Below are positions 33,901 to 56,483 of a stretch of 64,000 bases of DNA, in pieces (position 1 is the stretch's first letter; each line of letters opens with the position of its first letter). The position numbers and the translations under genes are program-made. The notes beneath the pieces were generated by a model. That model saw only the letters and a list, made by a program, of their open reading frames with translations. It ran no database searches and was not told the DNA's origin. Source of the DNA: Semisulcospira habei (lineage: Eukaryota > Mollusca > Gastropoda > Semisulcospiridae); assembly GCA_036245525.1 (NCBI GenBank), contig BTPG01000003.1, positions 205,596,035-205,660,034 on the forward strand, written 5' to 3'.

Positions 33901-34359
33901 ACCCACCACCCTACAAAGCCCCTCACACCACCCAGGCACCCACCCCAACCCCACACACAAGCACACACAAATATATTAGGTCATATTATTCCGTTCTGTG
34001 TCAACGCTTCAAATTTATGTCACTAAGCCACTATGTCAGATTTGTTTTGTGGCACAAACCTTGAAACTAGGTTTTCTTCCAAATATGGAGCACGACGTCG
34101 TTCGTAAATAAAATAAACTCCCCAAGTGAGGAGTTGTGTGGAGAATTTTTCTTTCGACGTCTGTGTGGAGAAAAAGTTTTCACTACACTCATCAGCACAT
34201 CGTGACTGGGAAGCATTAAAAATAAAAGACAAAACCCACAACTCTACTCCCAGCGAGAAACCTCAGTGATTTAAAGTTACTATACAGCTACTCTATTTTA
34301 CGAGTGTTTTTAGATCACCAACTCATGCGAGGAGAAAATTGGATGTGAGTGATTAATTT

Positions 34360-34860
34360 GAAACCGGATCCCTGTTGCGTGCAGTTTATTGCCGTCATAA
34401 CCTGACCAGAGTAGGTAGAGAATAAAAACCAGACAAGCTTTTTTGTAGTCATTGTGAGTTTACTAGATTGCATCCCTTTCATGACCAGAAAGTTGTGCTT
34501 GAAATCGGTTGTGAAACGGTTTCCTGTTTATGCTCAGTGGGTGACGAACCTTAACAATCGGCCTTTCATTCAGTTTTTATTAGCCTTGTCGCGTGATGCA
34601 TTAGTTTGAAACCAGATCACGGACATCTGTGTTGTGTGCGTTTATTGCTTTTGTTTACCCAACCAGAGTAAGGAGAATAAAACCAGACAAGCTTTACGTA
34701 GTCATTAATATAACGCTTGCGGTGTGAGTGAGTTTTTGCGTCCCTTTCATGACCAGGAAGGTTGAAATCGGTAGTGAAATGGTTACCTTTTTATTCTCAG
34801 TGAACAATAGGCCTTTATGCTCAAGCTTTTGCGTAGTCATCATTACCCTGTTGCATGATT
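34360..34860. repeat. Imperfect 240-bp tandem duplication near the Polinton left end
   Basis: Two units (about 34360-34600 and 34604-34860) share TTTGAAACC.GATC, CCAGAGTA.G...AGAATAAAA, CCAGACAAGCTTT and CCCTTTCATGACCAG. Possibly part of the terminal repeat or a promoter array. Confidence 0.55.
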
Positions 34861-34968
34861 TGCCAACTCTTACATTAGCTTATTTTTATTGGCTTAAAAT
34901 ATTTTATCCAATCGGTACCTAGGGCTTTCAAGATAAAACACAACTCCTAACAAGGCACCGGCAAAACC

Positions 34969-35423
34969 ATGGCACAAAATATTATCAAGGGATGTGGTCT
35001 TTTAAAAAAGCGGTTTAACACTTGTGAAAGAAAAGACAGTCTTTTCAGACAAGCATTGCAACTACTGAAGGATAAAGCACAGGATTTAGAAAAAAGTTTA
35101 CGTGATATTGAAAATGCGATTGAGAAGTCTGTGACTTACTTGATTAGGTACGAAGATGAAGGTAATAAGGAGGAGTTCAACAATGAGATGATAGAGTATG
35201 GCGCACTAAATGAAAAAAAGAAAAAGATGAAAAAGATAAAATTCGATGTGATCAAAAGATCAGATTGAAAGAGAGAGATATACAACTGAATGAAAAAAAA
35301 AAGATCTCAAAGAAAAAATAACAGCATTAGAAAAAGATTCCTCAGTTTTAAGCCTAGTTGAGTCTATGAAAGAGATGAGAATAAAAATGCGACAGCAAAG
35401 TGGAAGCAATGAGAAAAAGTGAG
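34969..35423 (+). pseudogene. Polinton-associated coiled-coil protein, frameshifted
   Basis: The ATG at 34969 opens a 99-codon frame rich in Lys and Glu (LLKDKAQDLEKSLRDIENAI, NEKKKKMKKIKF), predicted to be a coiled coil. Beyond its stop, helical Lys/Glu-rich coding continues in other frames to a TGA at about 35423 (segment KEKITALEKDSS), with shifts at A-runs near 35290-35310. The start lacks the ATAAAA motif of the other element genes. Function unknown; such small coiled-coil proteins accompany this element class. Confidence 0.5.
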
Positions 35424-35530
35424 TGTTAAACCGCTTAGTGAAAACCGCGATGTAAGCTAATATACAGGCTCTCAGGGTTATGTAAATACAAGCAAATTTG
35501 ATACATCATACTCTTTTACCATAGTAGTCA

Positions 35531-35760
35531 TGTGTTGGGAAACACATACACACAGTATAAGTTTTGTGACTTAGCCCCGGGAGTGCTGTGTGTATGTGTT
35601 TTTTTCTAACATGTGTTTTTTTCTCTAGGATGTACTGACAGCCAAACATGTCTTGGGAAACACATACACACAGTATAAGTTTTGTTACTTAGTCCGGGAG
35701 TGCTGTGTGTATGTGTTTTTTTCTAACATGTGTTTTTTCTATAGGATGCACCTACAGCCC
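35531..35760. repeat. 115-bp tandem duplication
   Basis: Two nearly identical copies (35531-35645, 35647-35760) of GGGAAACACATACACACAGT...CTGTGTGTATGTGTTTTTTT. The arms CACATACACACAG and CTGTGTGTATGTG also make each copy an inverted repeat. Confidence 0.85.
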
Positions 35761-35939
35761 AACAATAAACATACAAACACAAATTACACTTGAGAGCTAA
35801 CACGTTTGGATTTTGTGGTTTGGTGCAGTTAGAAGACCACGGAAATTGTTCATCCAAAATGGGTTGTCAAAGGTTAAAGACCTTTCTGACGAGGCTAAAA
35901 CTAAGCTGAAACAACCGTGAAAAGGTAAGTGAATACTTT

Positions 35940-37220
35940 TTAATATATGTGACTACTTAGCCTGCTCTCAGAAATGTTCAGTTGCGCATCATAAATCAGA
36001 TACAAATATATATTTATTGCTTCAGCTTTTTCAGTTTTTTTCTGTATTTGAATTGAGATTCTGTCACTACCGTTTTCGATAGTATGGCCAGAGCCATGAA
36101 GAAAATCATTCTCCATAGAATGCAGATCTAGCCACAGTGCGTATTTGTCTGTCAGGTATTCACTGATTCTTACATCATATAGATGCAGATCTTTACAAGC
36201 TATGTTTGCTGATTTTTCTCTAAGTCTCCCCCCTGCAAATTACTTTGTGATCTCATCATAGTGCTGATATCCCTGCATTCCCGACGAAAAAACTTGGTTA
36301 GGGCGGCCTTCGATTGTACAGGATAAATGTGTAATCTTTGGATTCTAAAATTTTTCTGAATATCCTTGGTAAGGACTTTTTGGTTCAACAAATAACATAA
36401 GAATGCCTTTCAGTGACCTAGCAGGCATGTTTAGGTTGATATTCCAAATCTGGTCACTTTTGTTTTTATTAATTAAACTGTGTCTTATCACACGGTCATA
36501 ATAAATCGGCAGTCTTGACTGGTACTGATTTTGAATGAGAGAAGCTAAATGAGCATGCGTGACAATCTCATATTCCAAGGAAATGTTAGAGATCTTGTAT
36601 GATGCATTGAGATCCGTTGATTTGATAACTTTGGAGTAGTTATTAAAGATTAGTTCGAAACTCAGGCGGTCATTTAGTGCTCCTTGGTAATAAGGCAAAT
36701 GCGCTGTTAGGATTTCAAATTCAAATGGAATGCAAAATCTGGTTCCATATGTTTCTGCCACTATAACGTCCTTGGCTTCTGTTGTTTTATCACTTGCATT
36801 TATTCGAATTTTCATAATGCTATCTGACTGTATGCCTTGATAAATACTATCCTCTCGTTCTTCTTTTGTAAGCCACAAATCTTTGTAACAGTAGAACACA
36901 TCGAAATCGTCAAGACTAAACACTTCCTGTCCTTCAAGTTTAACTTTAATATTCTTAATAATTGCTCTACATAGGTTGTTAACTAGTGTTCTTTTGTCAT
37001 CTGTATCTGATAAAAGTTCGATATTAAATGCAAGGCGTGCAGTACCAGGAACAATAACGTGACCGGGGTCTAGGTTAGGAAACTTGACAGTAAGGGTTTG
37101 GTTCTCGTCTATGGTGCTAGGATTGTTAGTGATAACGATTGATTGTCTAATGCCCTTAACACCAAGAGGCTCACGTAGTTTTCTGTATGGGTCTAACTTT
37201 GATCCATAGGACTGTGCCAT
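35940..37220 (-). pseudogene. Polinton major capsid protein candidate, two in-frame stops
   Basis: The frame reads from an ATG at 37218-37220 (MAQSYGSK; an upstream ATG at 37235 is less likely because the conserved ATAAAA motif lies just before 37220). It is about 427 codons long. It is beta-rich, with NPSTIDENQTLTVKFPNL, AIIKNIKVKLEGQEVF, FCIPFEFEILTAHLPYYQGA and NDRLSFELIF, matching the two-jelly-roll MCP-like proteins of Polinton-type elements. A TAG at 36345-36347 and a TAA at 36240-36242 break it; the same frame stays family-like to the stop at 35940-35942, including CTIEGRPNQVFSSG after the first break. No frameshift is needed. It is divergently transcribed from the gene at 37261. The capsid assignment is family-level inference. 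Confidence 0.65.
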
Positions 37221-37260
37221 TTTTATTATGCACAATAAAAAAATTAAATTAATAAAAACA
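37221..37260. promoter_or_regulatory. 40-bp divergent start region
   Basis: Only 40 A/T-rich bases separate the start codons of the capsid candidate (minus) and the next gene (plus). Each start is preceded by TAATAAAA. It must contain both promoters or both very short leaders. Confidence 0.5.
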
Positions 37261-38477
37261 ATGACAGCGGGAGGATTTGGTCATGATATTGAAATGGATG
37301 CCATGAATAACTATGATACTAATGCAACAGTTAATAGTTCAATGGATATTAAAGTAGAGGGAACTGCGAAGTTTTACTAAGCAAAGTGAACTCGTTTTAT
37401 GATAGTGTTGGTGACAGCCCAGATGAAATAGATCCTAATCAGTTTGAATATGAAAAAGGTCATTTATATTTAAACACTGTTGACAAAGGAAAAGTACAAT
37501 TGACTAACAAAAGAGACCCTGGTAAGTTTAGAGCTTTAAGTACAATCAAAAATGAAGGTGGTGTTGGCGCCTTGCGTCAACTTGGTATTGGAGATAAACA
37601 GTTACCGCCTAGACTTGCTAGTGCTCTTCATGACGTACAAACAAGATTGCCAACTGGTCAAGAAATTGAAATGACTGAAGTAACAAGACTGCCAGAAACA
37701 GCAGACAAGGTAATACAAGAAACTTCATTTACAGAAGGGCAAATAAATGAGGCTATGAAAACAATTGGTGACTCTCCTTTGACAATGCGGGAAATTATGG
37801 GCTTGGATAAAACACTGCAGTCAATCAGAGGTGAGCTTGTGAATAATGTAGCCAAACTAGGCGAGCTTGATAAACACATAGAAAAAGAAAAAGAAAAATT
37901 AGCTACAGCTGACAATGGGAATTATGACACAGAAATGAAAGAAAGAATACAACACAGATTAAATGATTTGCAGATAGAAAGATCAGCATGACTAGAAGTG
38001 ATTGAAATTGGAAAAGAAAATCTGAAATCACAGGTCAACAGAATTAGAGAAACTATTCAGAAAATACTTCACGAAGACACAACATTGGCTGAGAGATTGA
38101 AAACACTTTTCAGAGAGCAGGGTATCACTATTGCAAGTTTAATTGCTCCTCTTGGATTTATTATTAGTACTGTTGTGTTAGCTGTAACGGGAGGACCAGG
38201 GGGTAGCGGTCCGGCCCCTCCAGCTCATCCAGTTCCATCAGACCCAAAAGATTTACAGTCATGGGTAAAGAAACAATTGTCTCATATTTCAGACCTGCTT
38301 AAGAAATTGGCTCTGAAAGCAATGGATTCATTACCCGGTATTTTAGGCACAGTTTTCAGTTGGCTTATTAGTACAGCGGCAAAGGTAGTGGGGTTTATGG
38401 CAGAGAATCTGTGGGTCTTTTTGGTAACAGTAGGAGGGTTAATGGTAGGTTATTTAATGAAACAGGTAAAGAAGTAA
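37261..38477 (+). pseudogene. Polinton structural membrane-protein candidate, broken
   Basis: The start is ATG at 37261, after TTAATAAAAACA, reading MTAGGFGHDIEMDAMNN. A frameshift near 37375 leads into the long frame 37386-37991 (QLTNKRDPGKF, LPPRLASALHDVQTRLP, a helical region with LDKHIEKEKEKLA). A TGA at 37989-37991 interrupts it, and the same frame goes on to 38477. The last part has LAERLKTLFREQGITIASL, a Gly/Pro hinge and hydrophobic segments (IASLIAPLGFIISTVVLAVTG; ENLWVFLVTVGGLMVGYLM). This architecture is widespread in uncharacterised cnidarian and mollusc element proteins. A virion or membrane role is inference only. Confidence 0.6.
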
Positions 38478-39658
38478 TATACCTAATCCTGTTAATCCTA
38501 TTGTCAATGCGGTTCTTTCTGACTCATGTGTGACAGGCGTTGGTGATGACGTTTGGGGTGTTACTGGCGTTACTGACGTTACTAGCTGTTGTATGGGTGT
38601 TGGAGCAGGGGAAGTAACCGCCTGTATTGGTTTTAACATCTGTATAGGCGCAGTGGTTCCTCCTAAATTTACAGATTTATTGAGGCCTAATTTCTGATCA
38701 CTCCCAGCAACAATTATTTCATTATTATAATTTGTTATTGTCCCCATTTGGAGTTGAAGATCAGAAGGCAACATGTATAACCTGATGCCAACTACAAAGT
38801 CAACTTTTGATCTAGCATATCTGAGAACGTCTTGGTAGCGTTGTATGCTTGACGGGAGATCAATTACTGAGTTGATCAAATCTTCAAGATTTGCGAGAAA
38901 CTGTTTTTGAGATTCAAAATTTTTATTCAAAATATTCGATTTTGTTAATGATTGTGCTCCTAGTAAACACCATACATAAGTTCTGATAGATTCATTTACG
39001 CGTTCCACTCCCGCTTGAGTAAACCCATCACTCTTGTCTAAGATAAATGTGGTCCAGGCATTAGACTGTTTCTGTTCTATTGATCCTAACCATACTTGTG
39101 ATTTTGATGAGAATGAAGTGTAACCAGGGTAATAATCTTGTGGGTATTGTCTGTAACACATAGCATAATACAATGTACCCATGCCTTTGTGATCATCAAG
39201 TTTTTGTGTGAAGTCATACCGGGGGCTTATGTTAAACTCATTACAAATCCGTTCAAACGCTTTCATATCCATGGGGTTGTTATAACTGTTGAAACTAGAT
39301 TCAGTTGGTAGTGGGGTATGCTGTTTTGACAGTATACGTCTAAGCTGGTAATAAGTGTGGAAACGATAGACAGACTTAATCAGTTTGTTTGGGTGATTCA
39401 AGTGATCTGTAAATGAAACACCACAGCCTGTAGTACTACACAGTATAGCAAAGTTGAGTTGGTTTTGAACATCTGTAGTGGACTTGAAGACCACTTTCTT
39501 GCAGTAGCATCGTCTGTTATTGGCGGGTTTAGGTAATGATCAAAAGGGTTGGGTACTTTGACTTGAAATAAATCTTGTTCGCTTACAGCTATGTCGAGTT
39601 GATTTAGCTGAATTATTTTCTGTTCATAAGTAGGGGCGACATTGTATTTGGCATTCAC
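38454..39658 (-). pseudogene. Conserved Polinton-associated protein, one frameshift
   Basis: The N-terminal frame starts at 39658 (MNAKYNVAPTYEQKII, PNPFDHYLNPPITDD, ARKWSSSPLQMFKTN). A frameshift within about 39450-39470 leads into the 38454-39494 frame (LNFAILCSTTGCGVSF, FERICNEFNISPRYD, NAWTTFILDKSDGFTQAGVE, YNNEIIVAGSDQKLG). The Pro/Thr-rich tail ends in a single hydrophobic helix (LTIGLTGLGILLLYLF). The protein would be about 400 residues. Its 3' end overlaps the convergent gene at 37261-38477 by 24 nt. It is a recurring companion of this element class; I do not know its function. A virion surface or vertex protein anchored by the C-terminal helix is one possibility. Confidence 0.55.
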
Positions 39659-39732
39659 TTTAAATTGAAATGTGTTTATTGTGGTAATTGTTGGTGATTT
39701 AAATTCCGTCCTTTTTTTATGAGATAATAAAA

Positions 39733-40421
39733 ATGTTTATTACCTTAACAAATCTTGACACAAGCAAACCAGTGTGGTTAACTAATGGGATTGATAATCA
39801 TGATGGTAGCAAGGCTGTAGCTATCCATGAAATGTTTTATACAGTAAAATGGTTTAATGTAACAGATGATAACAATTATTCTGTAAGTGGAACTCTTGAT
39901 GGTTTAGAAAAGGGTGATATTTTACGAGCTGGATATTATGACTTTTGTACTTTAGCTGAATGGCTTCAAAATGAATTTAAAATTAAAGCAACTTTAAACC
40001 CAGCTAATTTACTTGTTACAATTGATTTTCCGAAAAGTGGTCAGTTTTCTTTATCAATTAGTCTTTTATTATTACTTGTTTTTTTAGGTAATAAAATAAC
40101 ATATCCAGATGAAGATTGGTCACAATCAGATGGACGTCTACTATCACCAAACAAATTAAGAATAACTGGAAGATACCCTGTTCATTTGTCAGTACACACA
40201 TTGCTAAATGTTCATTTGAAAGAATTAAGCACTACTGATAACTTCACAATGGAAAGCCTTCGACTTTGTTGAAATGTGTGTTGATTGGAACTGCCCCTTA
40301 TTGTGAAAATGTAGTTGCTAGATTTCCTAATTCACAGTTTAAAAAATTGGGCTCCAGTTTCTTTGAATCATTGTGCATATCTGTAACTAACCAGGATGAC
40401 AAAACCAGTTGTCATGCATGA
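39733..40421 (+). pseudogene. Polinton-associated protein (minor capsid candidate), frameshifted
   Basis: The ATG at 39733 follows GAGATAATAAAA. The 179-codon frame reads MFITLTNLDTSKPVWLTNG, KAVAIHEMFYTVKWFNV, GYYDFCTLAEWLQNEF, TGRYPVHLSVHTLLNVHLKE and is beta-rich. A one-base shift near 40248 truncates it; family-like coding continues in the next frame to TGA at 40419-40421. The pattern (short beta protein beside the capsid gene cluster) would suit a minor capsid or penton component, but no diagnostic motif is visible, so this stays a guess. Confidence 0.45.
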
Positions 40422-40471
40422 TTTTTATGTTGTGTTGGAAGTGAAATAAATTTTATTTTTGTTTTATAAAA

Positions 40472-41344
40472 ATGAGCGGTCTTGGTCCAAAGCCGAGAAT
40501 TATTCCAGTTGCGTGTCCATCAATAGAGTTGAAAGATTTGGCTGACGTGCAAGATTTTGAAAAAGAAGGTGAAATAGGAGATGTGTATGGCCTTGAACTT
40601 GTGTCCGTTGGATTGTACAAACGAAAGACAATTGAAGATGTAAAAGATGGCGCGTTTCCTAAACTTAGTCAACTTCGTGATGTTACTGGTCCTACTCCTG
40701 TAAGTAATGTGCTCTACAGCTTAAAACATATGGCTAATAAGTGGGTAATTATTCCTACCCCTGTTCCGCTTGCACCTATTCCCATTGTATGGGACATAAA
40801 GTTTGTTTTCATCAGTCCTTATGTTTATTTTACTGATGAAGGAGCCTTAGTATTTAGAAAAGTTGTTAACTCTGAGCCAATGCTTGTAAGTCTTGTGCCA
40901 AGCTATTCCGAAACCAATAGCAGAGAAAAACTGAAACTTCAAGAGTATGGGAAACGAAGGTATCTTCTTACAAATAGAAAGGGTAGGACAGATACTTCTA
41001 TTTCGTTTGTACCAGCAAATTTTACCATAGATAGAGATGCGACAATAGTTTTTGAAATTCTCATGAGATCTGTGGAAGCTGTGAAAGAAGCAGATATCGC
41101 GCAGGGAATCAAACTTATGTGGGAAAACTCAGTAGCAGAGTCAACAAAGGTTGTTATTGCTGTTAGAAAAACCAATACAGATTTTGAAGTTTTGAGTAGT
41201 GTCCCTGCTGTTAAGGTAGTAATTAATAAAACAACTCTAGTTTATCTAAGTTTCATAAACCTGGAACACATATATCTTGTTTCATTTTATTATGTTAGCA
41301 AATTGTATACCTTTGAAGGGTTGCAAAATAAATTAGAAGATTAA
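40472..41344 (+). CDS. Polinton-associated hypothetical protein, intact
   Basis: One of the few unbroken genes of the element (290 residues). The start follows TTTTGTTTTATAAAA directly. It begins MSGLGPKPRIIPVACP and shows a proline-rich middle (VIIPTPVPLAPIPIVWDIKF), then beta-rich sequence (RYLLTNRKGRTDTSISFVP, ATIVFEILMRSVEAVKEAD). There is no signal peptide, membrane helix or catalytic motif. It sits between two other element genes on the same strand with 50- and 23-nt gaps. Product unknown; a virion component is likely from context. Confidence 0.6.
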   Translation: MSGLGPKPRIIPVACPSIELKDLADVQDFEKEGEIGDVYGLELVSVGLYKRKTIEDVKDGAFPKLSQLRDVTGPTPVSNVLYSLKHMANKWVIIPTPVPLAPIPIVWDIKFVFISPYVYFTDEGALVFRKVVNSEPMLVSLVPSYSETNSREKLKLQEYGKRRYLLTNRKGRTDTSISFVPANFTIDRDATIVFEILMRSVEAVKEADIAQGIKLMWENSVAESTKVVIAVRKTNTDFEVLSSVPAVKVVINKTTLVYLSFINLEHIYLVSFYYVSKLYTFEGLQNKLED

Positions 41345-41367
41345 TAAAACATATTTGTCATAAAAAA

Positions 41368-41999
41368 ATGCCACCACTGTATCTGCAAATACCGCCTGAG
41401 CCGCTTGATCCTATTGTTCCAGATAAAACATTACAGGCAGACTCATTCTGTTTAATGAATATTACAGAAGCATTGAAGTATTTGGAAGAAGAACAACCAA
41501 AATACTCCCGTTGCAAACGACATTACAAAACGGTTTTCAATTCTGTACACAACACTTCAATGGCCATGGGTGTGGTTTCCACTGGATTATCTGTAGGAGG
41601 TATAGCTCTGTTTGCAACGGGAGTGGGAAGTGTCATAGGAATTGCTATTGAAGGTGTTGGCCTTGCCACAAGCCTGGCATGCTTTGGTATGGAGGCCCTT
41701 AACAAAAGATTTCATATGAGCAGAAGCATGAAGCCTTGAGTACGCTCGCAGCAGCTAAGCTGAGCAGTATGAAACTTATTATAATTAAGGCTTTAGAGGA
41801 TAATAAAGTTGACGATCACGAATTTAAAAATGTCCAGGATGATTTGGCCAATAACAAACAACAAAAGTCTGAAATACAGAATAAGATGCGTAGTCAACCC
41901 ACGAATGTTGAAGAACTAAAGAAATCTTTTTTAGAACAAGGGAAAAAGATAGGTGTAGAAGAAACTACAAAAAAAGTACAAGGATTTATAAGCAATTGA
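41368..41999 (+). pseudogene. Polinton-associated hydrophobic helix protein, frameshifted
   Basis: The ATG at 41368 follows GTCATAAAAAA. The first frame (41368-41739) has MPPLYLQIPPEPLDP, ALKYLEEEQPKYSRCKRHYK, and a Gly/Ala-rich hydrophobic hairpin (GVVSTGLSVGGIALFATGVG). A shift near 41715-41735 moves coding into the frame 41736-41999, a charged helix (LAAAKLSSMKLIIIKALEDN, DDHEFKNVQDDLANNKQQKS). Together it would be about 205 residues. The hairpin plus helix architecture recurs in hypothetical proteins of this element class. Membrane or capsid-interior role unknown. Confidence 0.5.
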
Positions 42000-42305
42000 C
42001 GATAGGTTTTGGTAATCCATTATTTTTGTCATACACTTCGCAAAGAGATGTCATGCCTGCCTATCTAACGCCATCTGCCCCACCACCAGAGTACTAAAAA
42101 AAGTTTTCTTGTTGCCCTTGTAACTTGAGAAATCTGACCGAGTGTCTTATTGTTTGAAGTCAAGAACTTGTGACAACTAACTTCAAAGTTAACGTCAAAG
42201 TCACTTGTAAGTTGTAGGTAACTTTGAAATTAGTTATCAAGTAAGATCATAAGTTATTCACAGGTCCAAGCAAAGCTGTGTTATTTTTTTATTTTTCATT
42301 ATAAA
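42000..42305. other. Non-coding gap inside the Polinton-like element
   Basis: No frame of note. It contains repeated AACTTCAAAGTTAACGTCAA-like inverted motifs (about 42178-42235) that could form hairpins, possibly a terminator or promoter region. Confidence 0.35.
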
Positions 42306-42827
42306 ATGAACCAAGACGAATTACTTCTTCTAAGCGATATCTGTGCTGTAGAAAACATTGACTTAGACTCGAAAAAACAGCGTCTTCTCTCTGTAGTTGT
42401 TTCCTGAAAATCAAAAGCTTTTCTCGGAAAACAATACATGACAGAAGACATAGAATCTCTAACAGCTGATGAACTATTTAAACTTCATTCGAAATATGAA
42501 AATCACATTAGTTCACTAATGACACGTGATTTGAGTCGATCTCTTGTCTGCCTATACACAAAAGCTGTGAGTCACTTCCTACATGTTGATAGTGACAGCC
42601 TTTCACATGATCTAGAAAGCAACCCCATAGTTTCAAGTTCAATAGGCAAATTAGCATGCCTTATGTTTTACAAGTTTGGGAATTACCTTGCACCTGTGGT
42701 AAACTTACTCATTACTGAGAGTCATATTGATTTTTCTAAAATAAATTTTAAATTAGAAGAAAATGGACAAGACCCAGACGACTCCACAACAGAGTCCTGT
42801 CTTGACACAGGTTCAAACAGTGACTAA
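42306..42827 (+). pseudogene. Polinton-associated helical protein, in-frame TGA
   Basis: The start at 42306 lies after TTTTTCATTATAAA (MNQDELLLLSDICAVENID). A TGA at 42405-42407 splits the frame, and the same frame continues from an ATG at 42438 (MTEDIESLTADELFKLHSKY, ENHISSLMTRDLSRSLVCLY) to 42827. The YENxxSxxMT..L..S...LY signature recurs in small proteins of this element class. Its end overlaps the next gene in another frame, as expected for a compact genome. No known function. Confidence 0.5.
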
Positions 42828-43184
42828 GGCTAAAAGTCCAGGTCGAATAGAGGCTGGAAAAAGATTAGCTGAATATAATAGACAAAAAAATTACAGCTTC
42901 AAGCATTAATAGAAAAGACTGACACACCATCAACAGCACCAGCGTCACTACCGTCACACCCCCAACAAAGTGAGAGACAAACAACTGAGTCTAAACCCGA
43001 AACAACAAAATATATAGTTGCTGGATTTGTTTTCGGATTTGGTTACGTAGGTTACCAATTATACAAAAAATACAAACCACAGACTCAAACAGTGTCCAAA
43101 AAATCAAGCACTCCAAAAATAAAAGAAGTAGTCGCCACATTACCAGCAACACCCAAAGCCGTGGACCCATTTTACATGCAGTAA
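42765..43184 (+). pseudogene. Small Polinton-associated single-pass membrane protein, frameshifted
   Basis: An ATG at about 42763-42766 opens MDKTQTTPQQSPVLTQ, then SPGRIEAGKRLAEYNRQ. A shift at the A7 run (about 42885-42891) leads to a Pro/Ser/Thr-rich linker, one membrane helix (YIVAGFVFGFGYVGYQLY) and a short tail ending VDPFYMQ before TAA at 43182-43184. The basic N-terminus (GRIEAGKR) and the DPFYMQ end are shared by hypothetical proteins of cnidarian and mollusc Polinton-like elements. Too broken to appear as one long frame. Confidence 0.5.
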
Positions 43185-43219
43185 ATAAATTTATTTTTTA
43201 AATTTTTGTGGCATAAGAA

Positions 43220-43432
43220 AATGAGCGACACAAAGAACATAATAAACCTCATCTATCACTCTGCCGTAATAAGCGGGCTAACAGTTGCTTATTCTATGCT
43301 TGGGAAAAGTCTTCTCAAAATGAGACTTCGAAGACAGTGCTAAGCTAGTAGCTGTTGTATTGTAACAGCATCGATTGCCACAAAAGACCTTCTTGTCAAG
43401 CAGGGAATTATTCCAGAAAATGTTTCTATGTA
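43220..43432 (+). pseudogene. Very small two-helix membrane protein gene, frameshifted
   Basis: The ATG at 43220 comes after TTTGTGGCATAAGAAA: MSDTKNIINLIYHSAVISG, then LTVAYSMLGKSLLKM, a hydrophobic helix. Two small shifts (near 43335-43365) separate this from a second segment ending TKDLLVKQGIIPENVSM at TAA 43430-43432. About 70 residues in total. Its position, just before the 145-residue membrane protein, and its size match a recurring gene of this class. Function unknown. Confidence 0.45.
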
Positions 43433-43442
43433 AATAAAAAGT

Positions 43443-46699: not shown

Positions 46700-46856
46700 A
46701 TGAGCTCACAGAGCAGCAAGCAGCTAATGTGTTATTTCTGTGGATACATTTGTGAAGCTAGTACAAAGTGAAGGTGCATCAGTAATGGAACAACGCCCAA
46801 TCTCATCACAATACATAACAGATAATCGCAGTGGCAAGGTAAGTTGTGAACCTAAA

Positions 46857-46923
<67 letters not shown>

Positions 46924-49350
46924 CTTGGGACAAAATGTACAGCTGGCTTATATTTAGAACAAAATATACAGCTGTCTGAATAGAATTAAATATACAGCTG
47001 TCTGAATAAAAAACAAAATATTCCTGCAGTTGTCTGAACACAGACAAAATGTTCAGCTGTCTGAATGAAAACAAATGTACAGCTGCTCGCTGTATGAAAA
47101 CAACATCAGCAATTGTCTGGATGAGAATATAATCAACAGGTCTAGGTAAGGATAAAATAATTATACCACTATAATCAACCTAAAATATATTTGTTCACAA
47201 AATAACAGCACATTTCAGTGTGATGAAATAGAGCAATACATGTATGTGCATAATTCATTATGAAACTCACAATCAGGTATATAAGTGGTCTATTGTAAGT
47301 TGGCTTGCCACTGATACAATGTATTTCTCATATTTTCCTGAAACCACAAGCTGATGAACAGGAGAAATATGAGTGACAAAAACTTATACTATCATTCTTG
47401 TATACCAAAATATTTTATTGCTAGTTTTTCTGTGAATCATGTAAATACATGTATGTATATATTGCTCCATATCATAACACTAAAATGTGCTGCTATTTTG
47501 TGACTAAGCCATTTTTAGAAAGCCACACGTACATGCGTATGTGCACACATGCCTATTTTCTGTATTTATTTCTTTTTCAACAGGTTTTGTCCATCCATGA
47601 CTGTGTTTATGGTTTGTTTCTAGACAGCAGGGCTGCCACAAGGTCAGGTGACTTGAAACTGGTGAATGCACAGACTGGCATCGAGTTTCTGAAGACAGCA
47701 AGACCTGTCCGATAAGTTGTCACCGACAGAGTTCTACTGTAGTCTCCTGCTACTTTCAGGTAATTATCAGTTTGGTGGCATTTGATTTTGAAGTATGGTA
47801 CACCCGTGCGCTTGCACAAAATCATTTTTGTTTGTAAAAGTGTTATCACATCACACATAAAGTAGCTTATAGTGTCCTGGAAATATTGCTGTCACAACAC
47901 TAAGTTATGATTTACATATGACTGCTACCTCCACACTGTAAGTATATTTACAAGTTGACAGTAAACATTATTATCATGGTGCCATGGTGGTTTTTCTCCC
48001 AAGTCTTCATAACAGCTAGTGCTAGCTACCGGTCAGTTTGCCACTCTGTAATGCATGTATCTTTTTTCCAGTATGAAATAGATTTGTATATTATTACTGA
48101 CTTGATCGCAGCCACTGAAACTTCTGGATCATTACTTTGATGTGTGGCACAAAGGCAAGCGAATTGCATAAAAGGTTTGAGTTGAGCTGTGTGTTTACAT
48201 GGAGGATTATATCCTTGAGTGTATGCAGAACAAAAACACACGAAACTGTCCTGTCATCGAAATAACCTACTCAGTATAAACTGCTGCTGGTACATTTTCA
48301 CTTTTGTGCTTTTTTTACTTTCAGGTTTTGCTTTATCTATTATATTGGCCATCTGTTTTCAGTTTCTTTGCTGCTGCCAAAGGCTAAACACCACTTGAAA
48401 CAAGGGATAAAGCCTGTTATCAACCATCACCACACATTACGAGTGTCCTTGCCAGGCATGATCAAGGTATCATGTCTTATTTATGCACTTATTTTGACTT
48501 AGAGTTTAGATATGTTTCAGTCTCATCATTGAGTGTTTTGAGTGTTAGTCAAGGAGATGTATCTATGTGGCTGAAAATGAAATGGCCCCCCCAAAAACTT
48601 TCATTGGCTACAAAGGCTACACAATGCGCAACAGGCTTACCATCCTTGACTTCAACCACCAAGTATGCAAGCAGTATACCAAGATTAGCAACAGGCACTC
48701 TGTGGCATACCAGGTAGCACAGCAGAAATATGCATAGTACATGTATGTTACACACTTGTGCAATTTCTGGTACAAGTGCAGTATTGTACATGTCATTTTC
48801 AGTATCATTACAGTACATGTATTTGTAGAAATATACTATTTAGGATTGTGACACTGACCATGAAAACTAATTCTTTCTTATGGCAAGTCAGGTGCAGAAT
48901 TCCTGTTCATGTGCACTGTTTACAGTATGTAGTTATAACAAGGATGAAAAATGAAAGCAGACATGTATGCAATTTATGAAGAAGAATGTCCAAATGTATT
49001 GAAAACAAAAAATGTCCAACATTTTGCTTTTACATTCAACTTTAATACTTTCTTGTATAGAGAGTACAAAGTGCACAATATGGAGTATATATTACATGCA
49101 TGTGTCCATTTATTCATGTCCCAACTACTTGTACAAACAGATGTAAACAATCTCCATGACAGAAAGTAAATTTTAAAAGTTAATGAAAATGTTCTCTTCA
49201 TTCTGTTTTTTCTCATCAAGGAATGTGCTCCGTGGCCTTGTATCCCCAATGCCTCACTGATGAGAAGCTCTCCAGTTTGTTACATTACCTATGCAGTACA
49301 GATGACAAGATTGAGCGACGAGTGGATGTGGTTTTTCAGCAGAAGTAAAG
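46700..49350 (+). pseudogene. Possible decayed transposase exons
   Basis: Several short stretches look exonic: one starting MSSQSSKQLMCYFCGYICEA and ending at a CAAG/GTAAGT donor (46842); one after TTTTTCAACAG (47584) with IHDCVYGLFLDSRAATRSGD; one with LLLPKAKHHLKQGIKPVIN (about 48365); one with FIGYKGYTMRNRLTILDFNH ending at CCAG/GTAGC (48712); and one after TCTCATCAAG (49220) with GMCSVALYPQCLTDEKLSSL. A CxxC pair and the late NRLTILDFNH segment would suit a zinc-finger-bearing cut-and-paste transposase. The frames are broken and I cannot name the family. Confidence 0.3.
46858..46920. repeat. (GT)n microsatellite
   Basis: About 62 bp of GT units inside the TTAA transposon. Confidence 0.9.
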
Positions 49351-50445
49351 ACTTGGAGGTTGGTTTCACACACATACACAACCAGATAGTGCCCTCAGGT
49401 AGTTTAGATTGGGGCTTAGAAACTGCCATCTGATTATGGCCACCTGACAAGAGCAACAGTGTTTGCTGTTGCCAAGCCCCATATGGCTCTCATGCCACAA
49501 CTGAAAAAAATCTGTATGTAGAGTGTTGGTGATGTTTGATTGCTATTATAATGTGGGAATTTTATTTGCAAATGTGATGCTATAATTTTTGACGCTGCAA
49601 AATTTGACTTCGGTCTGCTTCTTACAAATATCTAGAAAAGTTGGTTCTTCTGTTAACTCGATCAGCTGGATCAAATTCAGTAGTTCTTGTTGTCCATTAT
49701 TATTAGATGATTCCCACACAAACAGTAGGCCGGATTGTCTTCACTGGTCACGCGCTGATAAGGTGTCGCCTCTACTCCCACATTCGATATGGTCACCAGG
49801 GGCTGCTCATCGGTTGAGTGCATCTTTAGTCTCCCCCAGGGAAAAGTTGGTTATGTTGGCCTGAAAACATATTCATATAATATCATGTTACCAAGCAGCA
49901 TTGCAAAGCTACAATGTCTTTTATTATTAGAACAAAACTGTATAAATCGTTTGACCATCACCGAGACAAAGAAATTGTTTGTAAAAGTTATTTTGCAAAT
50001 CTGTCTTGTATGGAGTTTATTGATTACACTGGCTGTGATTGATTCATTACGGTTGGTTTCATGTTGAGTAGATTATACTGGCTGATACCCGGTAGCCAAG
50101 TAAACTCATCTAGAACAGTGTTTGCAGTACATCTTCACATGTACTAACTGACCTTTGTTCTTGTCTTGCAGCTGCCTGCTGAGAGCAAGTTGGGGCACAC
50201 TGCACTGCATCAGGCTGTTTGCTGTTCCAAAGTTTCTGTGTGACATTGCTGCTAACGCCCCTGCAGTTTGGTGACATGTTTGACACTGGCCAGTCTGTTG
50301 TCTCTTCACTGGTTGGACCTGTCCATGAAGGCTGTCTGTCTGCTGTGGAATCATGGCAATATTAGCATTTTGGTGGATAGCAAAATTTAGCATATGATGA
50401 TAGAACTATATTGCCATATGTAACATTACATTAGGAAATCGTTGC

Positions 50446-50545
<100 letters not shown>

Positions 50546-50813
50546 TGCATGTGTACCCGCCCCCTCCAGCCCCCCCCCCCCCCCTCTCCCTCACTTACCA
50601 AAACACAGTGACCAAGTTTGAATGACAGCATCATAAGCAAAATATACCATGCATATAATTCAATGACATCACTGAAATTGTTTCTTTATAATTAAAATGG
50701 TTGTCTCTGTTCTGTTTGTGTTTTTGCCTCATGTATTATTACAGTTATATATGGTGCAGGAAGTAAAAGTGCACATGTATGTTGTTCTGTAGAGAAGAAC
50801 CCTATGAGGAAAG

Positions 50814-50906
50814 AACGTCGCTTAGAAATGACAGTTACAACACAATTTATTACTAGATAATATGAATAAAATTGTGTTGTAGCTGTCTTTTCTAAGCGTC
50901 TTTCTT
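50814..50906. repeat. Inverted repeat inside the TTAA transposon
   Basis: Arms CGCTTAGAAATGACAG...ACAACACAATTTA and TAAATTGTGTTGTAGCTGTC...TAAGCG, about 32 bp each, flank a 15-20 bp spacer. A small nested MITE. Confidence 0.65.
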
Positions 50907-52234
50907 TTTTTCGTTGAGTTCGTCTCTGCATTACACACGCTTCGCAGTCACCATTTTGATCTGGACTATGTGGTTCTGTAGGGTACATAGACTACTTGGT
51001 CTTGTTGAGGATAGACATACTCATTTCATAAAAAAAAATCAGCTGTATTTTTAGGAATTATGACAATCATGGTAATTGTGTTTTATTTATGTATACACTT
51101 ATTGATGTAAACCTGCCTGTCCCGGATTGGCCTCCGCAGCCACGAAAATGCCTGCAGACGACGTGGGCAAGCCCTATAGAATCTTCGTTCGTGAAGTCAA
51201 GCCAAGAGACACTTATTGATGTACTTGACGATTTTGGTAAACTCATAAGAGAAGCCTCACAATGAAAGGCATTTTTAACAGTTTCACTCAGTACAGATAT
51301 AAACAAATAAACCATACGTTGAAGTGTATTTGAAAACAATGTTTTTGTCACAAAATGAAGATCAAGTGAGATATACCTCTTGCTGTTGTGAACTGATATA
51401 TTTTCTTGATATTTATTTTTGCGGGTTGAGTCATTTCAGTTTTCTGATAGAGAACATTGCTATATGGAGTAATCAGAAATAAATCCCACATGGTTTGCTG
51501 TCAGTGCAAACATAGATAAACTATGAATGAAATATATTGTGGTTAGAATACCAATTACATAATATATATATATCTGTTTCCTAACATTTATTTCATATCT
51601 CATAACCATAGCAGGAGGTGAAAGAAACCTAATGCTCCAGCCGAAGGGGTGCATGCCTGCATGATGCCAGCTTGCTTTCATCTGCTTCCTAAAGTCAATC
51701 GGGCAGGGGGGGGGGGGGAAGAATTCGCACAACCCCCCAAAAATGGAAAAATTAGTAACATTTAAATTAATTTGGGTCGAGGGCATAAACAGACATAATT
51801 ATATGGTCTTGTCAAAAAAATGTATACATTATTGGTATGGCGAATGCCGGAACCATCTGCTGCGGCCCTGTATCTAATTATTTTGAAACTTGCCTCTCGT
51901 TTGCTCGTGCACCCTTTAGCTTGTAGTTGGTGTATCGGTGTTTGCTGTCAGGCACCTGCATGAGGTATGCATTGGGCAGGGTGCATTGCGTGTGCATAGA
52001 CAGCAGTTGGTCTGGTGAGAAAATATTATCACTGAACTCATCAAGTTTGCAGACGGTAATTATCTTTTGTGATACAAAAAAAAAAAAAAAAAAAAAAAAA
52101 AAAACAAGATGAGAAGTAAACGACAAAGCAAAATATTACCTAGTGCTTAGATTCTTATAATGGAATCAAATTTTATGTCCGTGTAACACACACGAACAGG
52201 CACAATCACATCAATGGGTGACCGTCTTCACTCC

Positions 52235-52400
52235 TAGAAGCTGATTCAGCTTTTCAAAATCCCGAAAAGCTGAATTTCAGCTGTTTGGTTCAGACAGAAC
52301 AGGCCTTCAGCCAGCCTGTTCCAAATGCAAAAGTCATACATTCTCATGAGCCCCTGCATCCGCAGGAGCTCATGGGAATGTATATCGCTTGCTGGCCATG
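52235..52400. repeat. Two adjacent palindromes, one family B-like
   Basis: AGCTGATTCAGCTTTTC...GAAAAGCTGAATTTCAGCT, then TACATTCTCATGAGCCCCTG...CAGGAGCTCATGGGAATGTA. The second has the GCTCATGAG core of family B with changed flanks. Confidence 0.6.
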
Positions 52401-52680
52401 GATTTATGGGGCATATTTATGTCCCGTTTACATTCATTTCATATTCTCGCACTGTCACCCATGCACATCACATTGTTGCATGATGACCTGTAAATTATCT
52501 CCCAGGCTTTTGTGAAAAATAAAATCGTTTTGAGGTGGGCGTTTGCGCGTTGCTTAGCACGGGAGTGCTGTCCCTTACACACACATTATCTAGTAGCTTC
52601 CCTTCGTAAAAATGGCGACTACCATAAAGACTTGTTGTTTGCAAACGCTTTCGAGGAAACCTTGTTTTGGATAAATGCGA

Positions 52681-53087
52681 GGACATAAGAAATGAGAAGA
52701 CCACGATATAGCATGTTCGACGTACCGTCACCATTCCCTGGGCCATTTTTGGACGCTGTGGACGTCGCTCAGTGCTTCCCAGTACCGGCCCAGAAGTGAA
52801 AGTTGGATAGTCATCTTTCGTTGTTGTTGCACGAGAATTGTGGGTGTTACCGTGTACGGACAGATGCAACTGGAAGTGACCTTTGGCAGCTGAGTGGCGT
52901 ATACCTGTTTGCATGAACTGTGACAGCCGTCAAGGACGTCTGACACTCTACAGCAGCTATAGTAACGTGAATGTTCGGGGATCCCATCTGATGAGGCCCT
53001 GTCAGGGTTGCACTTCAAGTCAGGTCAGTAGGGACTTCGAAATTTTTTTTCGCTGTCCTCAACTGACTAATTGCTGAACCAGGACCT
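52681..53087 (-). repeat. Right terminal inverted repeat of the TTAA transposon
   Basis: Reverse complement of 45633-46032, with about 80-85 percent identity by eye and indels. Confidence 0.8.
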
Positions 53088-53091
53088 TTAA
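53088..53091. other. TTAA target-site duplication, right
   Basis: Right copy of the target TTAA of the 45633-53087 transposon. Confidence 0.9.
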
Positions 53092-55697
53092 AGAAGTCTT
53101 TGTCAAATGCAGTGTTGCCATCTCTCGCACGCAATGTTGTGTTCTTCATTGTGTAATCTTTCATGAAAGCACTCTGATCAAATTGAATGCCTCTGTGAAC
53201 TTTCTTTAGTATTAACCCATGTCTGATGTAAAACTGCAGTAAGCGATAGTGGTAAACGTAGTTGAATTTGTCATTCAAATTTGGCACAAGTTTGGTGTCT
53301 TCTTTTTTCCCTGTCATACTCATTTTCTCAACAGCCAATGGATATTCATTATGCAGTAGATGGTGTGGGTACTCCAGGTCTACTTCAAAGATCCAACCCT
53401 TCGCGTTGTTTCGGTCATGACTCATAATATAGTTTGTTAACTGTGTTATGTCATACTGTGACAAATCATAGGGATAAAAGTTTTTCAAGGGCAATAACTC
53501 ACACATTGCAAATCCATAATGTTATTAGCATCCAAGTACGTAATGAATGACCTTGACCTTGAGGGGTCAAACCCCAGGCCATCCAGATATTTGTTGTTGG
53601 CTTTGGAATAATTGTTCGCTGCAATACTAATCCCTCCCCTCAATCCACGTTCCACCATTTCACCCATCGTACGATCCGACAACAGGTCTATAGATATCTT
53701 GCTGGATTTCAAAAATGCATCCCATGTCATGCCAGGACTAGTTATGTAGCAAGCAGGGTCAAGACTGTAGTGTAACAAACCCTTTTCACGATAACTTTCA
53801 AATACGTCTGCTAGCAAGCAAACGTCAGCTTTCAAGTACTGGTCATGGTAGTCACCAATCATTTGACACCCTAGTTTACCCCATGCATCAAGTGCGCACT
53901 GGTAATCAGAGTCAGAAATACCTTTACCATTTAGTGTAGAATAAAATTTCTCTTTTGGAGGCAGTCTTGTTTCCTCAAACACAACCCAGTCACTGATGTA
54001 CTCATACGGATACACACCTTTCTTAATCAAGTCTGGTTCAAAATATTTACTTGTTATTGGATACTCAGTCAGTCCATCTGCAAGACTAGCAAGCCCTAAA
54101 GACAGATGTTGCATGGAGTCATAAAATGCTAATTTGTTGTCCAGCCTAAAAGTCAAGTATTTCTCAGTTGTCTGGGCAATACAACTAATTTTTTTGTAAG
54201 ACTCATCCACAGCCTGCATGATAATATGTGAATCATACCCTTTAAGATTATCGAAAAAGATAGGCAGTTTGTATTTTTCAGGAACTATTTTTAATTTCAA
54301 GTTACAATAACCATTGGCAGCACCTCTGTAACGTCCAGTTATGTGGTCATGTTCACGAACTTTATCACTGTTCAGAAGTTGATCACAATATCCTAAAGGT
54401 TGTTCACAAATCCAACACATCACTCCTGTATCAAAATTCTGTTTGTCTTCTTCTGTCATCAACAAAGGCATCTGACAGTTTTCCAAATAATATACTACCT
54501 GACTATACAGTTGTCTCATTTCTGTTAAAAACTCAGCTGCTGCATTTTCCCCTCTGTAGATAACAGGTTCTGTATGCTGACCGTCAGACCTAACAAGAAT
54601 ATATCCAAAAGAACACACCACTTGATCACTCAACTTTATTGTCTTTGGTAATGATTCTGGAACAGGACCCTCATATGGCACAACCAGTGATTCAAAATCA
54701 GCATACACTACAAATGGCAGCTTTTGCTGATTAACATAGTTCTTGAAATAAACCTTGCTACCAGGATTTGGATACCTAAGTATTGTTTGAATGTCATCAG
54801 CTGACCTACAGTGCAGGGTATGTTTATGTGCCACTTTTATGGAAGAGAACCTTTGTAAGCATCTCTTACATACTTCCTGTTTGCCATTGTGTTTTGATAC
54901 ATGGTTGTGAATTAGTCGTGACATACTCCTAATAATTGTGTAGTGAAAGTTATCACCAAAGCTTATTAGTAACATGTCAACATGCTTATTTTCTGACTGA
55001 CCGTAGGTGGGGGCAATTGGTGACACTCTAATTGGCTGTAACTTGTTCTCAGACTCATTATCCCATACATACACATTCACAGATATCCCAGGATTTAGTT
55101 TTTCAAACAGATCTATATCCTCCACCTTAACAGGAAAATCTATGCCACTGAAGTTGAGTTCATTTACAAATTTGGTATAGTTAGATACACGTTCAGGTTT
55201 TGTTTTTACAAAATGCAGTTTGGCAAGCACACACCATATGAAACAGAAATTATCTTTGTTCTGAACATTGACGACAGCCTTTTTGTCTGCAACCTCAGTT
55301 GGCAGTGGCAACCATGATTTGCCTAAAATAGGATGGTATCTTGACTGCTTCAGTTGCAGTTCATGTACACGGCCTTCGTGACAAGCAGATCCCTGCATTT
55401 TTCCTCTGTCAATTGCTTCAAGGAAGTCAGGCAACAGTCTTTCTCTAAACACTTTTTCCAATTCCCTTCTTGAATTAACTGTGTGGTGTCTTTCGAGATA
55501 TACGAAACAATCACTTCACCATCTACCCTGGTAAATTCTATTTTAGCAACAATCTGAATCTTTACACTACCAGAAAGAAGATTATTTTGTATGACCAAAA
55601 AAGACCTTTCTATCGATTCATAGACACTGTAAGTGTTGGATATAGGCAAGTCTGTTGTGTGAAACACGTTTCTTAAGCTTTGGGCATTGTCCGTCAT
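53092..55697 (-). pseudogene. Polinton DNA polymerase B, N-terminal and exonuclease part
   Basis: The start is ATG at 55695-55697 after GTCAAATAAAA (MTDNAQSLRNVFHTTD). A shift near 55460 leads into the 658-codon frame. Features in order, numbered in that frame: a C-x2-C zinc-finger-like pair (about 198-220), ExoI YADFES (about 253), an HNH-like block CWICEQPL...REHDHITGRYRG (about 349-378), ExoII NLKGYDSH (about 402), ExoIII DYHDQYLKADVCLLADVF (about 552), and motif A YLDANNI near the end. A one-base deletion in motif A (about 53515) shifts coding into 53015-53506 (ELLPLKNFYPYD), which ends at DKDFFK where the TTAA transposon begins. This is a protein-primed-type family B polymerase, the replication enzyme of Polintons. 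All catalytic motifs are recognisable, but the gene is dead. Confidence 0.85.
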
Positions 55698-55817
55698 TTT
55701 TATTTGACCGACAAAATAATAAATAGGAAAAATTATACCTTTATTGTCTGTAATCTCTATAATAATAAATATTTAGTTCATTTCCCAACAAATCAACCAC
55801 TTCCCCGGTATGTGTCT

Positions 55818-56180
55818 TTAGGTCTTGTGCTCATGCTGCAGGTGTAATATCACTTTATTGACAGTAACAAATTCAATATAATCATGTTGTTTACTTAGAT
55901 GGTAGAATATGTGTAAACACATACTCTCAAACCAGTCACAGTTAGCATCATAAATTATAAAATTTTGTATATTAAGATCAACAGTCTTGTAATTATAACG
56001 TGGTGGACAATTAGAATATCCAAAAGTTACATTAAATGCCATGTATATCTTCGTTGGTGTTGAGAGTTTTATCAAAGGCTGAAACGGATGTTTAACTTGT
56101 GTTTTTAAGTCATAAAAATGCACAACACCTCTGAAGCTCTCTGTGATATCAAATGCTTGCACGATTTGTCTGTCCATCAT
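55818..56180 (-). CDS. Small Polinton-associated hypothetical protein
   Basis: An intact 120-residue frame. The ATG at 56178-56180 follows TTTTGTCCATAAAAA (minus strand), the same start motif as its neighbours. It reads MMDRQIVQAFDITESFRGVV, KIYMAFNVTFGYSNCPPRYN, NFIIYDANCDWFESMCLHIF. There is no membrane helix or known motif. It lies between PolB and the ATPase on the same strand (28-nt gap to the ATPase stop). Function unknown; the position argues for a genuine element gene. Confidence 0.55.
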   Translation of the reverse strand: MMDRQIVQAFDITESFRGVVHFYDLKTQVKHPFQPLIKLSTPTKIYMAFNVTFGYSNCPPRYNYKTVDLNIQNFIIYDANCDWFESMCLHIFYHLSKQHDYIEFVTVNKVILHLQHEHKT

Positions 56181-56208
56181 TTTTTATGGACAAAACCATA
56201 AGGCTAAA

Positions 56209-56483
56209 TTAATTCACTAGTCCATACCCTGTGGGTTGATCTGTCTTTAAAATAAGCTTTAGATGCTTAGTCAATTTCAGTTTGTTTTTCACAATGTTTC
56301 GTTCATGTTTGCTGGGGATGACATCGTTCTCTCTGAGACAGTCTTCAAAGCTGTCACGATCTTTACAGTAAAACAAACAGATAAACTTTAACTGCTCACG
56401 AAAATCTTTCAGTACAGCATTATATTTCTGAGTGAGAACCCATACACTGATGTTTGCATGTGTAACCGGACTCAGTGACTGGG
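56209..56483 (-). pseudogene. Packaging ATPase (A32/FtsK-HerA type), C-terminal end, cut by LTR
   Basis: A short minus-strand frame, about 90 codons, ending at TAA 56209-56211. It carries the conserved C-terminal region of Polinton packaging ATPases: NISVWVLTQKYNAVLKDFRE, LFYCKDRDSFEDCLRENDVI and LKTDQPTGYG. The frame stays open to 56483 and then meets the TGTAG start of the gypsy LTR. The Walker A and B parts are therefore beyond the retrotransposon, outside the window. In the family this enzyme pumps DNA into the capsid, so its presence supports the Polinton assignment strongly. Confidence 0.75.

What the first reader, a model, noticed from the sequence alone, without database searches (positions are those of the whole stretch)
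34300..56483. A Polinton/Maverick-like element split into three pieces by two younger transposons
PolB, retroviral-type integrase, a capsid candidate, the ATPase end and a set of small companion genes lie in one tight block. The block is broken by a TTAA transposon in PolB and an LTR retrotransposon in the ATPase. Standard gene callers would see only fragments. Read together, it is one element of about 15 kb whose gene order and strand layout can be recovered.
Basis: partly seen in the sequence, partly recalled or inferred. Interest (0 to 1): 0.85.

Follow-up and report, generated by a model that had tools for sequence, protein, structure and literature searches.

The report
Virus fossil split by jumping genes
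An animal chromosome appears to carry the decayed remains of a Polinton-like DNA virus, broken up by younger jumping genes, and its closest relatives found here lie on virus-sized sequences rather than on long pieces of chromosome.

Summary
The observation largely holds. [quoted passage not shown] A 7.46-kb TTAA-flanked insert (45629-53091) with ~406-bp inverted repeats and no recognised domain sits between adjacent residues of PolB. A Ty3/gypsy element abuts, and probably cuts, the ATPase; the LTR in the window is its 3' LTR (56461-57853), not the 5' LTR. The third piece, beyond 64 kb, could not be reached: the genome server did not complete.
Added here: in trees of the best 120 hits per gene, the window groups with contig-borne rows that are all from contigs of 15 kb or less (20 PolB, 37 MCP, 43 P2). 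The 82, 19 and 30 rows from longer contigs fall outside, as do other short-contig rows. The modelled capsid fold of a relative is closest to giant-virus, ASFV, iridovirus and poxvirus-D13 capsids. The best reading is a decaying integrated copy of a meldvirus/Polinton lineage: a new member of a known kind.

The parts
34300..45632 (.). Left piece of the Polinton-like element (left edge approximate)
   Evidence: GC falls from 0.464 (32001-34000) to 0.375 (34001-36000); gene content. The true terminus was not determined.
34969..35268 (+). Small ORF, 99 aa, function unknown
   Evidence: ORF; only Pfam matches below cut-off
35943..37220 (-). Major capsid protein, double jelly-roll type; interrupted by two in-frame stops
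37353..38477 (+). Two ORFs in one frame divided by a single stop; probably one gene, with a hydrophobic C-terminal part by eye; function unknown
   Evidence: ORFs; same frame, one stop; no Pfam family reaching its cut-off
38508..39679 (-). Conserved ~415-aa protein ('P2'), one frameshift; function unknown
   Evidence: P0121 residues 1-88 and 72-393 align in two frames; 841 homologues; low-confidence model, no fold match
39733..40272 (+). ORF of 179 aa; penton (single jelly-roll) candidate by position and recall only
   Evidence: ORF; no Pfam match; identity not tested
40472..41344 (+). ORF of 290 aa, function unknown
   Evidence: ORF; no Pfam match
41368..41999 (+). Two small ORFs (123 and 87 aa), function unknown
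   Evidence: ORFs; only Pfam matches below cut-off
42438..42827 (+). ORF of 129 aa, function unknown
   Evidence: ORF; only a Pfam match below cut-off
43443..43880 (+). ORF of 145 aa just upstream of the integrase, function unknown
   Evidence: ORF; no Pfam match
43849..44727 (+). rve (retroviral-type) integrase; reading frame probably lost near the C-terminus
   Evidence: Pfam rve E 5.8e-11; candidate catalytic D82, D145, E180, 34 residues between the last two; loss of frame is my reading of the frames
44877..45633 (-). PolB, C-terminal part (palm, YTDTDS motif) in several frames
   Evidence: P0245 residues 876-935, 943-1065, 1072-1135; motif at 45332-45349
45629..53091 (.). TTAA-flanked 7.46-kb insert in PolB, apparently non-autonomous
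   Evidence: TTAA at both ends, inverted repeats; no Pfam domain at E 0.05 in any of six frames
45629..46034 (+). Left terminal inverted repeat of the insert (~406 bp, TTAA included)
   Evidence: blastn 82.6% identity to the right arm
52684..53091 (-). Right terminal inverted repeat of the insert
53087..55697 (-). PolB, N-terminal part: N-terminal region, OTU-like Cys/His motifs, exonuclease motifs with an endonuclease-VII-like region, start of the palm; several frames
   Evidence: P0249 1-78, P0245 90-748 and 735-877; motifs; Endonuclease_7 above cut-off in P0245 (E 2.3e-5), below it in the window piece (E 0.01)
55818..56183 (-). ORF of 120 aa, function unknown
   Evidence: ORF; no Pfam match
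56209..56460 (-). C-terminal end of a probable A32/FtsK-type packaging ATPase
   Evidence: Pfam Pox_A32 top match, E 0.036, residues 11-63 of P0241, residue 11 lying at the LTR edge; below the family's cut-off
56461..57853 (-). 3' LTR of a Ty3/gypsy retrotransposon
   Evidence: TG...CA ends and a polypurine tract (minus strand) from 57854; possible 5-bp target GCATG at 56456-56460, second copy not visible
59420..63999 (-). gypsy pol (protease, RT, RNase H, integrase) and gag-like ORF, running off the window
   Evidence: Pfam RVT_1 E 3.4e-34, RT_RNaseH, Integrase_H2C2, rve, gag-asp_proteas; gag-like ORF, named by eye

Best explanation
The block is an endogenous (integrated) genome of a Polinton/meldvirus, a linear DNA virus of roughly 13-15 kb. 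It copied itself with a family B polymerase of the protein-primed kind whose N-terminal part carries OTU-like protease motifs, inserted with an rve integrase, and built a capsid from a short double jelly-roll MCP. An A32-type ATPase probably packaged the DNA. After insertion the copy decayed through stops and frameshifts in several genes. A TTAA-targeting, apparently non-autonomous transposon landed in the PolB palm, and a gypsy retrotransposon probably in the ATPase. Shown here: gene identities of PolB, integrase and MCP; collinearity of the broken pieces; the TTAA insertion point; grouping with rows from contigs of 15 kb or less. Inferred: protein-primed replication, packaging, particles, the ATPase's identity, and that the relatives are free viruses. 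The confidence covers 'one integrated Polinton/meldvirus-type element, interrupted'; the free-virus part is scored in the section on the most novel reading.
For: Integrase. PolB pieces collinear with single intact relatives; exonuclease, palm and OTU-like motifs; relative P0247, 52% identical to the largest window piece, matches DNA_pol_B_2 (E 1.3e-7). MCP fold, on a model of relative P0007. Contigs of the same length (13,209 and 13,194) carry MCP, P2 and PolB relatives. Three gene trees group the window with short contigs. TTAA insertion. Gypsy. Published gene sets: PMC4028283 (outline and part 1 of 4 of its text), PMC11071308 (abstract and passages), PMC11071296 (passages and section 16).
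Against: No maturation protease was found in the visible element by six-frame Pfam scans. The penton is only a guess from position and recall. The ATPase match is sub-threshold. The window's PolB pieces and P0245 do not match DNA_pol_B_2. Neither terminus nor a target duplication of the element was seen. Profiles of MCP, P2 and PolB found no significant solved relative by sequence. IMG/VR and GTDB scans found no relative, so no relative's DNA or gene order could be read. The MCP model has only moderate confidence (mean pLDDT 62.3). Many listed relatives are on short contigs anyway (101 of 120 for MCP, 90 of 120 for P2, 37 of 119 for PolB).
Confidence: 0.85

Rival explanations
1. Same gene reading, other biology: an ordinary host-borne Polinton transposon family, vertically inherited in this animal's genome; its closeness to short contigs reflects fragmentary assembly of animal DNA in environmental samples.
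For: Relatives of all three proteins also lie on chromosome-sized contigs; named relatives are from molluscs (Mytilus edulis for MCP; Elysia crispata and Saccostrea echinata for PolB). Short contigs are common in the lists (101 of 120 MCP rows), and 14 of the 20 contig rows in the window's PolB set are on contigs of 1.9-7.5 kb, too short to tell.
Against: In the sets that hold the window, 0 of 20 (PolB), 0 of 37 (MCP) and 0 of 43 (P2) contig rows are on contigs over 15 kb, against 82 of 119, 19 of 120 and 30 of 120 in the full lists. The six longest contigs of the PolB set are 11.1-15.0 kb, near the size of a whole element. The 15-kb cut was chosen after seeing the list.
Confidence: 0.35
2. 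The block is a patchwork of unrelated viral genes that happen to lie together, not one element.
For: Genes lie on alternating strands; the block is interrupted by an insert.
Against: MCP, P2 and PolB relatives share contig lengths 13,209 and 13,194; MCP and P2 share 12,118; P2 and PolB share 13,795. The three gene trees agree on the kind of relative.
Confidence: 0.03
3. The sequence after 56461 is not an insertion in an ATPase; the tail ORF is unrelated and the element simply ended there.
For: The Pfam match to Pox_A32 is below its cut-off, and a Barstar match comes next at E 0.11. Only one junction is in the window.
Against: The Pox_A32 match starts at the LTR edge and is the top family of the tail. 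The ORF lies on the same strand, near PolB, and a packaging ATPase is expected in Polintons.
Confidence: 0.15

Closest known systems
Polintons/Mavericks (Polintoviricetes), PMC4028283
   Same: PolB, rve integrase and double jelly-roll MCP in a ~15-kb integrated element
   Different: Protease and penton not identified in the visible part; termini not seen; in the trees made here the window groups with rows from contigs of 15 kb or less rather than with chromosome-borne rows
Meldviruses with large-virus-like capsids (e.g. Meld23486), PMC11071296
   Same: adintovirus/Polinton-type PolB and integrase combined with an MCP whose model is closest to large-DNA-virus MCPs and poxvirus D13
   Different: No direct comparison with Meld23486 was made here; this copy is integrated and decayed
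Adintoviruses (alpha and beta), as defined in PMC11071296 section 16
   Same: PolB with OTU-like motifs in its N-terminal part, rve integrase, double jelly-roll MCP

Membership tests
Polinton/Maverick | Family B DNA polymerase of the viral/organellar type | tested here: met
   Collinear with P0245 and P0249; relative P0247 DNA_pol_B_2 E 1.3e-7. The window's own pieces and P0245 give no DNA_pol_B_2 match.
Polinton/Maverick | rve-type integrase | tested here: met
   E 5.8e-11; candidate D, D, E present
Polinton/Maverick | Double jelly-roll MCP | tested here: met
   on a model of relative P0007, 62% identical to the window protein (mean pLDDT 62.3)
Polinton/Maverick | Packaging ATPase (A32/FtsK) | tested here: inconclusive
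   Tail only, Pox_A32 E 0.036 below cut-off
Polinton/Maverick | Ulp1/adenain-type maturation protease | tested here: inconclusive
   None by Pfam at E 0.05 in six frames of the visible pieces; the element is incomplete in the window
Polinton/Maverick | Single jelly-roll penton | not tested
   39733-40272 is a candidate by position and recall only; no Pfam match
Polinton/Maverick | Terminal inverted repeats and target-site duplication | not testable with these tools
   The right end lies beyond 64000; the genome search did not complete (14 calls, e.g. 8 and 101)
Meldvirus | adintovirus-like PolB and integrase with virion proteins resembling those of larger DNA viruses | tested here: met
   description from PMC11071296 section 16. 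That the PolB and integrase are adintovirus-like rests on family and motifs, not on a comparison with an adintovirus.
Adintovirus | PolB with N-terminal OTU-like domain | tested here: inconclusive
   Conserved Cys and His motifs present; domain not modelled
Adintovirus | Hexon recognisable by BLASTp against adintovirus hexons | not tested
   No reference hexon was at hand
Adintovirus | Integrase with C-terminal chromodomain | tested here: inconclusive
   None by Pfam, but the C-terminus looks frameshifted
piggyBac (TTAA insert) | Insertion at TTAA with terminal inverted repeats | tested here: met
piggyBac (TTAA insert) | Transposase in the element | tested here: not met
   No Pfam domain at E 0.05 in any of six frames; could be a non-autonomous member, not filed as piggyBac
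Ty3/gypsy (right insert) | Protease-RT-RNaseH-integrase order | tested here: met
Ty3/gypsy (right insert) | Pair of LTRs with a target-site duplication | not testable with these tools
   One LTR with polypurine tract read in the window; the other would lie beyond 64000

The most novel reading that the evidence does not exclude
The window holds a fossil of an unrecognised lineage of free-living 13-15 kb animal DNA viruses that pair Polinton replication and integration genes with a giant-virus-type capsid; the 11-15 kb contigs of its clade would be the extracellular form of Polintons that has been sought.
Probability: 0.35. Interest if true: 0.65.

Novelty: new member of a known kind. Interest (0 to 1): 0.38.

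Why it matters
Polintons carry capsid genes, but a 2021 abstract states that an extracellular form had yet to be detected (PMC7805220; start of abstract seen in search listings). A lineage whose genes appear on virus-sized contigs, with one decaying copy in an animal chromosome, would make that question directly testable: read the ends and depth of the 11-15 kb contigs and look for nuclease-protected particles. As an annotation lesson, younger elements split a viral polymerase and probably an ATPase, so that gene callers would not be expected to see the element whole.

Tried and rejected
Window genome: the same genome search ('own', integrase) gave 'busy'. The flank beyond 64 kb, copy number, host name, the ATPase N-terminus and the right end are therefore untested.

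DNA of relatives: viral-contig scans with A1, A2, A3, the integrase and A4 and genome-contig scans with A1 and A3 found pattern matches but no relative. tblastn of the largest PolB piece against phage records found nothing. Solved structures by sequence: the MCP piece, profiles of PolB, P2 and MCP and the ATPase tail gave nothing significant.

Protease: six-frame Pfam scans of the visible pieces with X at stops found none; only rve reached its cut-off. TTAA insert: six-frame scans found no domain.

A patchwork of unrelated genes was rejected on shared contig lengths and concordant trees.

Full report
What is there. The block from about 34.3 kb to 56,460 carries genes expected of a Polinton/Maverick-type virus. 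The integrase at 43849-44724(+) matches Pfam rve with E 5.8e-11 and keeps candidate catalytic residues D82, D145 and E180. An intact 426-aa capsid relative, P0007, aligns over its full length at 62% identity to 37220-35943(-); the window copy has two in-frame stops. A second conserved protein ('P2', relatives of about 415 aa) lies at 39679-38508(-) with one frameshift. On the plus strand between them lie two ORFs in one frame divided by one stop (37353-38477). The other small ORFs examined have no Pfam family reaching its cut-off.

PolB. The intact relative P0245 (1140 aa) aligns, piece by piece and in order, to 55491-53476, 53518-53087, 45633-45454, 45442-45089 and 45068-44877 (minus strand). 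Relative P0249 adds the first 78 residues at 55697-55473. Exonuclease and palm motifs, an endonuclease-VII-like region (E 2.3e-5 in P0245; E 0.01, below cut-off, in the window piece) and Cys/His motifs in the N-terminal part are present. I read the last as the OTU-like domain described for Polinton polymerases in PMC11071308 (abstract and passages seen); that reading is inference. The window pieces and P0245 give no DNA_pol_B_2 match. Relative P0247, 52% identical to the largest window piece, does (E 1.3e-7).

The TTAA insert. TTAA stands at 45629 and 53088, and the ends are inverted repeats of about 406 bp with 82.6% identity. The PolB pieces on its two sides end at P0245 residue 877 and begin at residue 876, so no PolB sequence is missing at that point. 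Six-frame scans of the 7.46 kb found no Pfam domain at E 0.05, so it is probably a non-autonomous element. I do not file it as piggyBac.

The gypsy element. Its pol ORF at 59423-63382(-) has protease, RT, RNase H and integrase domains. The LTR, read at 56461-57853, begins TG and ends CA on the plus strand and is followed by a pyrimidine run, a polypurine tract on the element's strand. This is the 3' LTR; the 5' LTR must lie beyond 64,000. The ORF that abuts it, 56209-56493(-), has Pox_A32 as its top Pfam family (E 0.036, 14 bits against a cut-off of 22.8). The matched part starts at residue 11, at the LTR edge. That fits an ATPase cut by the gypsy but does not prove it. The other side could not be reached because the genome search did not complete (14 calls).

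Relatives. The protein searches found 1648 MCP, 841 P2 and 1380 PolB homologues; the best 120 of each were listed and used. Contigs of identical length hold relatives of several genes: 13,209 (P0007, P0121, P0245), 13,194 (P0028, P0125, P0249), 12,118 (P0015, P0149) and 13,795 (P0152, P0251). That these are the same contigs is inferred from the lengths.

Trees. In a FastTree tree (midpoint-rooted for reading) the largest window PolB piece falls in a set of 22 rows with support 100: 20 on contigs of at most 14,981 bases, one transcriptome protein and the window. The 82 rows from contigs over 15 kb are outside, and so are 17 of the 37 short-contig rows. For MCP a set of 38 rows (support 97) has 37 from contigs of 15 kb or less; the 19 long-contig rows and 64 other short-contig rows are outside. 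For P2 a set of 44 rows (support 100) has 43; the 30 long-contig rows and 47 other short-contig rows are outside. Since 101 of 120 MCP rows and 90 of 120 P2 rows are short anyway, PolB is the strongest of the three. By rank, 0 of the 20 best contig-borne PolB hits and 82 of the next 99 are on contigs over 15 kb (Fisher p 6.5e-13); this is post hoc, and the rows are not independent.

Check of the tree. A mixture-model tree on 46 hand-picked rows, using only the columns of the window piece, kept the PolB result (21 rows: 19 short, transcriptome, window; support 100). One of the 20 short-contig rows in it, P0261, grouped with the long-contig rows. The window row has a long branch in both PolB trees. 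The 15-kb limit was chosen after seeing the list. Six of the 20 contigs in the PolB set are 11.1-15.0 kb, near the visible size of this element (34.3-45.6 plus 53.1-56.5 kb, about 14.7 kb); the other 14 are 1.9-7.5 kb and cannot tell.

Interpretation. The most likely reading is a decayed integrated genome of a Polinton/meldvirus lineage. Polintons are described as carrying PolB, integrase, capsid proteins, ATPase and protease (PMC4028283, outline and part 1 of 4 of the text read). Meldviruses are described as including genomes that join adintovirus-like PolB and integrase with virion proteins resembling those of larger DNA viruses (PMC11071296, section 16 and passages read). The window element fits the latter description. 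Protein-primed replication, packaging and particle formation are inferred from these families. A mollusc host is my guess.

Novelty. Mavericks are reported across the mollusc genomes analysed in PMC10294476 (two passages seen), and capsid-bearing Polintons are known. What may be new is the lineage and its bias to virus-sized contigs. My literature searches listed no paper whose title or visible abstract describes this clade. I read only parts of the papers cited, and the founding adintovirus paper was not held.

Noticed in passing
window 35529-35738: Two direct copies ~117 bp apart, each with a 16-bp perfect inverted repeat around a ~30-base loop and ending in a pyrimidine-rich run and TAG after CTAAC (splice-acceptor-like). 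A donor-like AGGTAAGT lies at 35923. Possibly a spliced plus-strand leader running over the minus-strand capsid gene.
   Followed up: partly
window 34352-34802: Imperfect direct repeats of ~190-200 bp, about 255 bp apart and 68% alike, near the element's left end; perhaps part of its terminal repeat.
   Followed up: partly
window 57234-57613: A tandem array with 48-bp spacing (six register copies, 66-100% to the reference) lies inside the gypsy LTR.
   Followed up: no
window 26256-26858: ORF with a Tectonin domain (Pfam E 2.7e-32), probably a host gene or pseudogene.
   Followed up: no
window 15995-19069 and 29487-30440: Reverse-transcriptase ORFs (RVT_1), the first with an endonuclease domain; probably non-LTR retrotransposons.
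   Followed up: no
P0247: A EukProt PolB protein with a transcript-assembly name falls inside the window's PolB set, so a member of it is probably transcribed in some eukaryote sample.
   Followed up: partly
window 30714-31053 and 32554-32898: A repeat of ~340 bp copied 1.84 kb apart; its three aligned parts are 93-95% identical.
   Followed up: no
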